From assembly GCF_016907875.1 (NCBI RefSeq), contig NZ_JAFBCU010000001.1, positions 2,232,001 through 2,296,000 on the forward strand: a stretch of DNA of 64,000 nucleotides. The letters run 5' to 3'. The first letter of the stretch is position 1. The number at the start of each line of letters is the position of its first letter. The notes below the pieces were generated by a model. It saw only the letters and a program-made list of their open reading frames with translations, had not been told where the DNA came from and made no database searches. Below, piece by piece: positions 6,008 through 29,044 of this stretch. This DNA is from Arthrobacter roseus (lineage in GTDB: Bacteria; Actinomycetota; Actinomycetes; Actinomycetales; Micrococcaceae). A program made the position numbers and the translations under genes.

Positions 6008-6946
6008 ATGCGTCCCAGCCAGACGAATAGACCCCACCTTGATCTTCCCCCGATCACATGGACTCCGATCCCCAGTATTTCCGGCCGTCGTGTCATCGTC
6101 ACCGGTGCAAATAGTGGAATCGGTCTCCAGACCTCCTTGGCGTTGGCTGGTTCTGGTGCAGTGGTCACGATGGCCTGCAGGAACCCGGATAAGGCAGAGA
6201 CCGCACTGCGCATGGTTCAGGAACGAACCGGAAACCAGACCTGCAACACGGTCGCGTTGGACCTCTCCAGCCTGGAGAGTATCCGTAACTTCGCCGGGCG
6301 TGTGAAACAACCGGTGGACGTCTTGATCAACAACGCTGGAGTGATGGCGCCGCCACTTAGCCGAACACACGACGGCTTCGAGATGCAGTTTGGGGTGAAC
6401 CATCTGGGCCACTTCGCGCTGACCGGGCTTTTGATGGACCAGCTCCGTGCCGGTTCGGTGCCGCGAGTGGTCACCCTGTCCAGCATTGCGCACCGCCGCG
6501 GGAAGATCCGCTTCGAGGACCTCAACTCTGAGAAAGGCTATCGTCGGTGGCGGGCGTATTCCCAGAGCAAGCTGGCAAACCTGTATTTCGCTACAGAGCT
6601 TGAGCGCTGGCTGCGCACAAAGGGTACGGACGTCATCTCGATCGCGGCTCACCCGGGAGTCTCGGGAACGAACCTCACCAAACGTGGCGGTCACCGAGGA
6701 GCCTTGGACCTGCTCGGAGGAGTATTCGCGGCCATGGGTCAGCCCGCCGCAGCAGCGTGCTTGCCCACGCTCTACGCCGCTACAGGCGCAGATGTTCAGG
6801 GAGGCGACTACTACGGCCCCAGCGGACCCGGCGAACTTCGCGGCACAGCAACTCTGGTTGCACCCTCACCGGCTGTGCTGGATGAAGAAATTGCTCACCG
6901 GTTGTGGAAGCGGAGCGAAGAGCTGACCGGCGTCAACTACTGCTGA
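6008..6946 (+). CDS. Short-chain dehydrogenase/reductase (retinol dehydrogenase-like)
   Basis: NAD(P)-dependent classical SDR of 312 residues. Visible motifs are the cofactor-binding GANSGIG near residue 32, NNAGV, the structural HLGHFALTGLL, the catalytic serine region VTLSSIAHRRG and the active-site YSQSK pair. The sequence resembles the retinol dehydrogenase / WW-domain oxidoreductase branch, which in actinobacteria includes many enzymes of unknown substrate. ATGs occur at 5993 and 6008; GGAG at 5995-5998 is nine bases from the second, which is preferred. It starts immediately after the MarR stop and is the last gene of the LLM/MarR/SDR operon. Its 3' end overlaps the convergent cysteine desulfurase gene by ten bases. 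Confidence 0.87.
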   Translation: MRPSQTNRPHLDLPPITWTPIPSISGRRVIVTGANSGIGLQTSLALAGSGAVVTMACRNPDKAETALRMVQERTGNQTCNTVALDLSSLESIRNFAGRVKQPVDVLINNAGVMAPPLSRTHDGFEMQFGVNHLGHFALTGLLMDQLRAGSVPRVVTLSSIAHRRGKIRFEDLNSEKGYRRWRAYSQSKLANLYFATELERWLRTKGTDVISIAAHPGVSGTNLTKRGGHRGALDLLGGVFAAMGQPAAAACLPTLYAATGADVQGGDYYGPSGPGELRGTATLVAPSPAVLDEEIAHRLWKRSEELTGVNYC

Positions 6947-28580: not shown

Positions 28581-29044
28581 CAGGGCTAACAGTGCACGAA
28601 CACGAAAAAGCCGAAACACCGGAGGCTGGGGAAGCTCGGGTGTTTCGGCTTTTCGTTTGCCGTGGGCCGTAGCCCAGGCTGTGTGGTGAGCTTGTCTCGG
28701 TAAGCTCTACAAAAAGAACAATACGGGTGTTATGGATGCCACGCTATGGGTACTTCTACCCATCCACGCATTTGCTTTGTAAGCATAACGAGTGCTATGC
28801 ACCATGCTGATTCGGCGTGAGATTAGTGTTAAAAGAGATAGCCGGAACATCAGAGGCTGGGGAAACTCTGGCGTTCCGGCTATCTATCGTCCCTGACAAA
28901 GTCTGGGATGGTGGTTGGGGCTTGTCGGTAGCCCCTTCCTCACTGACAACTATAAATAACTAGGCTCCAGTCCGCGATGGGGAGAACTACCCATGTGGCT
29001 AGTTTGCACCCACCCCGGATCAGGAGTATGTCTCACAATCGGAC
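28581..29044. repeat. Two tandem diverged copies of a three-hairpin element
   Basis: The 464-base gap between convergent hpaD and the MHS transporter holds two units offset by about 231 bases. Unit A: hairpin 28605-28653, GAGCTT/AAGCTC (28688-28693 with 28702-28707), and ATGGGTA-CTTC-TACCCAT (28746-28763). Unit B: AGATAGCCGGAAC/GTTCCGGCTATCT (28836-28848 with 28873-28885), GGGGCT/AGCCCC (28917-28922 with 28930-28935), and ATGGG/CCCAT (28977-28981 with 28990-28994, enclosed by AACTAG/CTAGTT at 28958 and 28999). Order and spacing agree within a few bases. Stems differ by compensating changes while loops such as GAGGCTGGGGAA and CTTGTC...GGTA are kept, which suggests selection on RNA structure. 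Read leftward, each unit ends in a terminator-like hairpin followed by Ts. No ORF is present. Confidence 0.6.
28605..28653. terminator. Strong intrinsic terminator after hpaD
   Basis: AAAAGCCGAAACACC at 28606-28620 pairs perfectly with GGTGTTTCGGCTTTT at 28639-28653 across an 18-base loop containing GAGGCTGGGGAA. The A-run before and T-run after make it work in both directions, ending the hpaD operon on one side and anything transcribed leftward on the other. Confidence 0.85.

What the first reader, a model, noticed from the sequence alone, without database searches (positions are those of the whole stretch)
28605..28994. Two tandem diverged copies of a three-hairpin element between hpaD and an MHS transporter
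Seen: the same order of hairpins recurs with a 231-base offset and nearly constant spacing (about 82 and 59 bases between hairpins). Stems of the second hairpin differ by compensating changes (GAGCTT/AAGCTC versus GGGGCT/AGCCCC) while loop segments CTTGTC...GGTA and GAGGCTGGGGAA are kept, and the third hairpins share ATGGG/CCCAT. Read leftward each unit ends in a GC-rich hairpin followed by Ts. Inference: duplicated small RNA genes, or a structured 3' UTR of the transporter, rather than two chance terminators.
Basis: partly seen in the sequence, partly recalled or inferred. Interest (0 to 1): 0.6.

Follow-up and report, generated by a model that had tools for sequence, protein, structure and literature searches.

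The report
Twin small-RNA genes, secretion-type promoter
Between two metabolic genes of a bacterium related to Arthrobacter lie two old, side-by-side copies of what looks like a small regulatory RNA gene, each behind the same kind of promoter that its relatives place in front of genes of the type VII protein-secretion machine.

Summary
In detail: two diverged tandem units, 231 nt apart, lie between hpaD and an MHS-type transporter, and the one other genome of the genus keeps both. The reading needs redrawing. On the minus strand each unit looks like a complete small-RNA gene: an 18-bp palindrome, 22 nt, a -10 box, then an RNA of about 110 nt with three hairpins, the last terminator-like with a C-rich loop.

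A covariance model finds 20 strong copies in 18 of 395 family genomes (three genera; 12 of the 18 trained it). All 20 have the palindrome and a -10-like box 22-23 nt on. At that strength only this genus has two copies. The palindrome, with the same spacing, also stands before WXG100-type and other type VII secretion (T7SS) genes, so the RNA probably belongs to that regulon.

Inferred, not shown: transcription, the binding factor (one candidate rejected), action by loop pairing with mRNA. T7SS start sites were not enriched as targets (p 0.15-0.46). No Rfam family matches; the 6C RNA is an analogue that fails the membership tests.

The parts
   Evidence: 18 of 18 identical in G001; same or nearly same 18-mer before other sRNA copies and T7SS-type genes
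28949..28954 (-). predicted -10 box of unit 2 (TATAGT), 22 nt after the palindrome
   Evidence: TA...T at 22 or 23 nt in 20 of 20 strong copies (my reading); 6 of 6 identical in G001
28830..28942 (-). predicted sRNA of unit 2, about 110 nt; ends inferred from -10 box and terminator
   Evidence: 108 of 113 identical in G001; covariance-model hit 94.4 bits (a training sequence)
28917..28935 (-). 5' hairpin of unit 2 RNA (GGGGCU/AGCCCC)
   Evidence: fold; 19 of 19 identical in G001
   Evidence: fold; its one internal mismatch is a standard pair in G001
28836..28885 (-). terminator-type hairpin of unit 2 with C-rich loop (UUUCCCCAGCC)
   Evidence: family helix has changes on both sides in 10 of 15 pairs
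28746..28763 (-). promoter palindrome of unit 1 (minus strand ATGGGTAGAAGTACCCAT)
   Evidence: kept in G001 with a changed centre, 16 of 18 identical
28718..28723 (-). predicted -10 box of unit 1 (TATTGT), 22 nt after the palindrome
   Evidence: my reading
28603..28711 (-). predicted sRNA of unit 1, about 109 nt; ends inferred
   Evidence: 95 of 109 identical in G001; covariance-model hit 88.9 bits (a training sequence)
28688..28707 (-). 5' hairpin of unit 1 RNA (GAGCUU/AAGCUC)
   Evidence: 19 of 20 identical in G001
   Evidence: 11 of 21 identical in G001, yet both versions fold, with paired changes
28606..28653 (.). terminator-type hairpin of unit 1 with C-rich loop (minus strand CUUCCCCAGCC); T runs on both strands, so it may also end hpaD

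Best explanation
These are two tandem paralogous small-RNA genes transcribed leftward (minus strand). SHOWN by comparison: a three-hairpin RNA family, its structure kept by compensating changes, in three genera of the family; each strong copy sits behind a fixed promoter module (18-bp palindrome, 22-23 nt, -10-like box); the same module stands before WXG100-type and other type VII secretion genes. INFERRED: transcription itself; a start about 7 nt after the -10 box, which puts the palindrome's centre near -43; a dimeric activator that binds the palindrome and turns the RNA on together with the secretion regulon; action of the RNA (about 110 nt) in trans through the C-rich loop of its terminator hairpin, by pairing with G-rich mRNA sites such as ribosome-binding sites. 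Targets are not identified. The duplication is seen only in this genus and is older than the split of its two held genomes.
For: Repeat and fold. Conservation above third codon positions. Model R2 in 395 family genomes: 20 hits of 69.7 bits or more in 18 genomes, next hit that is not the opposite strand of a strong copy 38 bits; all 20 have the palindrome with TA...T 22 or 23 nt on, against no palindrome in the 12 weaker loci returned. Twelve of the 18 genomes trained the model; six did not (G176 and G189 are nearly identical to one that did; G206, G269, G312, G361 are new), and in G206, G269 and G361 the palindrome differs from the 18-mer that I had searched for. Covariation: 15 of 23 pairs with changes on both sides, score 0.449 against 0.206 in shuffles and at most 0.177 when slid. 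-10 spacing: 48 of 100 exact sites at 22 nt and 12 at 23, mirror side at most 4 at any offset; 24 of 40 further chosen sites at 22/23, pairs of control offsets 0-1. T7SS link. An MHS-transporter relative upstream on the same strand in 16 of the 17 other loci.
Against: No expression data. The factor is unknown: the one candidate tested occurs in 16 of 149 genomes at E 1e-20 and not in the other sRNA-bearing genera. C-rich-loop pairing with T7SS start sites is not enriched over background in four genomes (MWU p 0.15-0.46); high ranks in a small first set did not hold. A seed search gave 14 and 15 hits in G000 and G001 (controls 4 and 2) but no shared gene start. Not every palindrome precedes a T7SS gene: in G000 one lies beside a tRNA gene and one before a DUF4190 gene without the 22-nt box; in Gordonia one scanned case precedes a GerE protein gene. 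6 of 9 palindrome-linked proteins scanned from sRNA-bearing genomes have no Pfam match. The 5' helix pairs in only 75% of cells on my alignment. The simple promoter/terminator scan did not list these elements. Unit 2 has a short T run only.
Confidence: 0.72

Rival explanations
1. The hairpins are only (bidirectional) terminators between the convergent genes hpaD and the transporter gene, duplicated by chance.
For: Position between convergent genes; unit 1 has T runs on both strands.
Against: The 5' hairpin and the palindrome outside the terminator are about as conserved as the terminator; homologues lie beside other neighbours; the loop, not only the stem, is conserved.
Confidence: 0.1
2. Structured 3' UTR of the MHS transporter, processed into RNAs.
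For: An MHS-transporter relative lies upstream on the same strand in 16 of 17 other loci; only 50 nt separate its stop codon from the unit 2 palindrome here.
Against: A palindrome and -10-like box of its own in all 20 strong copies; in the eight g8 loci the transporter ends about 260-1,100 nt before the palindrome (my subtraction).
Confidence: 0.12
3. The palindrome is bound by a repressor or a general regulator, and the RNA is an ordinary sRNA that is unrelated in function to secretion.
For: The palindrome adjoins the place of a -35 box; some sites precede genes that are not of the T7SS.
Against: The fixed 22-23 nt distance to the -10 box resembles activator geometry (general knowledge); many of the recognisable protein targets are T7SS genes.
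Confidence: 0.25
4. A mobile or REP-like repeat.
For: Two copies in tandem with hairpins.
Against: No other copy in the genome; the same neighbour gene across three genera.
Confidence: 0.02

Closest known systems
6C RNA (Rfam RF01066; mycobacterial B11)
   Same: Actinobacterial sRNA with C-rich hairpin loops; B11 is reported to repress ESX-4 (type VII secretion) genes by pairing with ribosome-binding sites (PMC10470900, passages read).
   Different: No RF01066 match in the window, in six sRNA loci at E up to 10 or in this genome at E up to 1 (which found the family over its cut-off in 2 of 19 relatives); one C-rich loop, not two; C4 in this genus, C5-C6 in relatives; three hairpins; promoter module shared with T7SS genes.
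LuxR/NarL-type (GerE) DNA boxes such as those of DevR and PimM (recalled, from no call)
   Same: GGG...CCC palindrome near -43; in one Gordonia locus scanned, the palindrome precedes a gene for a GerE protein. A NarL-type regulator, DegU, is reported to activate a T7SS in Bacillus subtilis (PMC3701619, search listing only; its class is recalled).
   Different: Factor not identified; the best match in this genome to the Gordonia GerE protein was rejected by its distribution.
Type VII (ESX/WXG100) secretion regulons of Actinobacteria
   Same: Palindrome before WXG100-type genes, an EccC-linked WXG100 gene and the first gene of the T7SS cluster.
   Different: Here the predicted regulon includes a small RNA gene.

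Membership tests
6C RNA (RF01066) | covariance-model score at or above the gathering score of 47 bits | tested here: not met
   no match at gathering in the window; no RF01066 row at E up to 10 in six sRNA loci; 0 matches in G000 at E up to 1, while 2 of 19 relatives pass the cut-off
6C RNA (RF01066) | two hairpins, each with a C-rich loop (recalled; B11's two C-rich loops) | tested here: not met
   only the terminator hairpin has a C-rich loop in the 18 units folded
6C RNA (RF01066) | loop pairs with G-rich ribosome-binding sites | tested here: inconclusive
   no enrichment at T7SS start sites, no conserved seed target; no genome-wide search done
Trans-acting bacterial sRNA gene | own promoter and intrinsic terminator | tested here: inconclusive
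   met by comparison; not listed by the simple consensus scan; no experiment
Trans-acting bacterial sRNA gene | structure conserved by covariation | tested here: met
   mainly the terminator helix; the middle hairpin was not aligned well enough to count
Trans-acting bacterial sRNA gene | discrete transcript | not testable with these tools
   no RNA data
T7SS regulon member | same palindrome and -10 spacing as T7SS genes | tested here: met
T7SS regulon member | co-expression with T7SS genes | not testable with these tools
   no expression data

The most novel reading that the evidence does not exclude
A dedicated small RNA of the type VII secretion regulon: an unrecorded sRNA family in Micrococcaceae, switched on by the same activator as the WXG100 substrates and acting through a C-rich loop as the post-transcriptional arm of that regulon, an independent counterpart of the B11/ESX-4 link in mycobacteria, duplicated in this genus.
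Probability: 0.45. Interest if true: 0.75.

Novelty: new variant of a known kind. Interest (0 to 1): 0.6.

Why it matters
Regulation of type VII secretion outside mycobacteria and Firmicutes is little described, as far as I know. A sequence signature that ties WXG100 genes, the T7SS cluster and a small RNA into one predicted regulon gives direct tests (palindrome mutants, factor pull-down, RNA-seq), and a second C-rich-loop RNA linked to T7SS in Actinobacteria would suggest a recurrent kind of control.

Tried and rejected
Target prediction: the seed search CTGGGGAA N2-12 ATG gave 14 hits in G000 and 15 in G001 against 4 and 2 controls; the only match between the two sets lies inside a coding sequence (MutY-like by my reading). 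Loop duplex energies on 125 reading frames ranked some T7SS genes high. With 86-105 background start sites and 8-11 T7SS sites in each of four genomes nothing was significant (p 0.15-0.46); of 40 shuffled loops 4 (G075), 6 (G312), 17 (G206), 21 and 36 (G000, two loops) did as well. My gene caller is crude, so this negative is soft.

Transcription factor: the best match in this genome to the Gordonia GerE protein, a NarL-type response regulator (E 5e-4), is found at E 1e-20 in 16 of 149 genomes and not in the other two sRNA-bearing genera: rejected.

Known RNA families: none at gathering in the window; weak rows such as ar35 at E 0.19, below its gathering score, taken as chance.

Mobile or REP element: no other copies.

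Rows dropped: 22 of 149 genomes had E up to 1; outside the genus I accepted only the five loci with a palindrome at the right place. In one search, 60 of 395 genomes had E up to 0.05; I counted only the 20 hits of 69.7 bits or more; 12 weaker loci were checked, the remaining weak rows were not. That search used stricter filters that lose weak matches and drew its genomes from a larger group. In one search I chose 40 of the listed non-sRNA sites.

Papers: eight searches. Their listings, judged by title and start of abstract, showed no report of this RNA or palindrome; the literal half-site was in 12 papers, 10 listed, none on bacteria by title. This is no proof of absence. For PMC10470900 I saw passages found by terms; all other papers were seen as search listings only.

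Full report
The repeat. Units at 28604-28650 and 28835-28881 are 81% identical with offset 231. Searched against the whole genome, unit 1 finds unit 2 at E = 1.5e-5; the other rows are its own reverse complement and stretches of 14-23 nt at E 0.028 or worse. Folding energies are far below shuffles on the minus strand (z -7.8 and -6.3) and also on the plus strand (z -5.2 and -7.4), as expected for near-perfect hairpins, so the strand is decided by other evidence. The simple scan for promoters and terminators did not list these elements.

Same-genus comparison. The only other held genome of the genus, G001, keeps both units between the same genes. Identity to G001: unit 1 RNA 95 of 109, unit 2 RNA 108 of 113, unit 2 palindrome 18 of 18, unit 2 -10 box 6 of 6, unit 1 palindrome 16 of 18; DNA between the units 29 of 65; third codon positions of hpaD 204 of 356. 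The middle hairpin of unit 1 is only 11 of 21 identical, yet both versions fold (GGGC/GCCC against GGAC/GUCC).

What the 'third hairpin' is. In this genome the palindrome (pattern ATGGGTAGNNCTNCCCAT, up to 2 mismatches: 9 forward and 8 reverse rows, reversed control 2 and 2) occurs at the two units and also before three genes: an 89-aa WXG100 gene that follows an EccC/EssC-like ATPase gene (the ATPase scores below the NCBIfam cut-offs), a 343-aa gene with a C2-type protease domain and, by eye, a WXG-like start, and a 317-aa gene with a WXG100 match below the cut-off. In these three and in both units a -10-like hexamer begins exactly 22 nt after the palindrome. Other sites do not fit: one before a DUF4190 gene lacks the 22-nt box, one lies beside a tRNA gene, and several two-mismatch sites look like chance. 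Among 100 exact sites of the 18-mer from many genomes (some fetched twice) TA...T starts at 22 nt in 48 and at 23 nt in 12; on the mirror side no offset exceeds 4. The 18-mer with up to 1 mismatch is in 40 of 149 family genomes; the reversed control is 0 throughout.

The RNA family. Model R1 (4 units) found, among 149 genomes, five loci outside the genus with the palindrome in place. From 14 units I built alignment A4 and model R2. RNAalifold on A4 predicts 17 pairs of the terminator hairpin, 11 with changes on both sides. With the 5' hairpin added, 88.5% of cells pair, 15 of 23 pairs have changes on both sides, covariation 0.449 (shuffles 0.206, 0 of 500 as high; slides up to 0.177); the count of further pair types does not exceed shuffles (257 of 500). 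The 5' helix alone is weaker (75% of cells), because unit 2 and some others need a one-base shift that this alignment does not give. In 395 family genomes R2 gives 20 hits from 97.6 to 69.7 bits in 18 genomes of three genera; below that come the opposite strands of strong copies (41.9 bits and less) and, at 38 bits and less, others. All 18 strong loci (20 copies) carry the palindrome; the 12 weaker loci returned carry none. That TA...T lies 22 or 23 nt on in 20 of 20 is my reading of the rows. Twelve of the 18 genomes trained the model; of the six others two are nearly identical to a training sequence. At this strength only the window's genus has two copies. 18 units folded (both G001 units were lost by my filter) show a 5' hairpin and a terminator hairpin with a C4-C6 loop; the middle hairpin stands alone in all but two (G352, G361).

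Genomic place. In 16 of 17 other loci an MHS-transporter relative (61-92% identical over the aligned part) lies upstream on the same strand; G112 is the exception. Its end lies about 260-1,100 nt before the palindrome in the eight g8 loci and much nearer in the window's genus and several g45 loci (my subtraction). The other neighbour changes with the genus: hpaD here, a permease-like gene in g8, a TetR-like gene in most g45 loci (permease and TetR are my readings of sequence, not database results). In the window HpaD and HpaE pass their NCBIfam cut-offs; the transporter's best model is TIGR00883 metabolite/H+ symporter, 394.7 bits, below its cut-off of 443.45, while Pfam's MFS models pass.

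Regulon in sRNA-bearing genomes. Palindromes with up to 3 mismatches were listed in 15 sRNA-bearing genomes. I chose 40 of the listed non-sRNA sites and fetched flanks. 24 of 40 have TA...T at 22/23 nt on at least one side; pairs of control offsets give 0-1. By eye many downstream reading frames are the large first gene of the T7SS cluster (one tested is 44% identical over 229 aa to the G000 protein, E 5e-58) or WXG100-type proteins. Of nine such proteins scanned, two match PF06013 just below its cut-off (E 2.2e-5 and 4.9e-6), one matches DUF4190 below its cut-off, and six have no Pfam match. Of nine hand-picked proteins from other palindrome loci, seven match PF06013 at E up to 0.01 (three over its cut-off, one more over that of WXG100_2) and two match DUF6507. 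Those picks were made partly because the proteins looked like WXG proteins, so this is not a rate.

Mechanism. With a start about 7 nt after the -10 box the palindrome is centred near -43, where activators of the class II kind sit (general knowledge). The binding factor is unknown; a GerE protein gene behind the palindrome in Gordonia suggests a LuxR/NarL-type factor, but the best match in this genome does not follow the palindrome's distribution. The C-rich loop of the terminator hairpin is the best conserved unpaired part. By analogy with the 6C RNA B11, which represses ESX-4 genes by loop pairing at ribosome-binding sites (PMC10470900, passages), I propose pairing with G-rich mRNA sites. 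Tests of T7SS genes as targets were negative.

Known or new. No Rfam 15 family reaches its gathering score in the window; 6C membership fails. I found no report in the searches named. I judge it a new sRNA family of a known general kind.

Noticed in passing
L121 (palindrome 758-775) and other Gordonia/Williamsia loci (L112, L122, L128, L132, L153, L181, L186, L191): The same palindrome with a -10-like box at 22 nt (nine of nine) precedes a gene that in the one case scanned (L121) encodes a small GerE (LuxR-type) protein; possibly the factor's own gene. Other Gordonia loci (L113, L156, L167, L190) have a second GGGGAGTTCTCCCC palindrome just downstream.
   Followed up: partly
L136, L145, L185 (Microbacterium): The palindrome precedes a gene that looks like a FliA/WhiG-type sigma factor (read by eye, not scanned).
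   Followed up: no
L124, L158, L184, L195, L198 (Agrococcus): The palindrome is followed by about 180 nt of similar multi-hairpin, apparently non-coding sequence ending in a GC-rich hairpin: perhaps another sRNA of the same regulon.
   Followed up: partly
L119 (Arthrobacter sp. SDTb3-6), about 6140-6334: Palindrome and -10-like box followed by a terminator-like hairpin with an ACACCCCCCC loop, not found by model R2: perhaps a distant relative.
   Followed up: no
G000:C1:956179-956196 (L047): A two-mismatch palindrome lies directly beside what reads like a tRNA gene (not run through the tRNA finder); no explanation.
   Followed up: no
G000:C1 about 1293655-1315513 (L216, L217): T7SS-like cluster with an Ig/FN3 giant protein, MoxR-like ATPase, PP2C phosphatase, Ser/Thr kinase, FHA protein, EccC/EssC-like ATPase and WXG100; I saw no palindrome in the 260 nt before its first gene here, unlike in the relatives.
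   Followed up: partly
L349 (G001:C1:1147214): Palindrome between divergent genes (a WXG-like protein and a lipoprotein-like protein) with -10-like boxes 22 and 21 nt away on the two sides.
   Followed up: no
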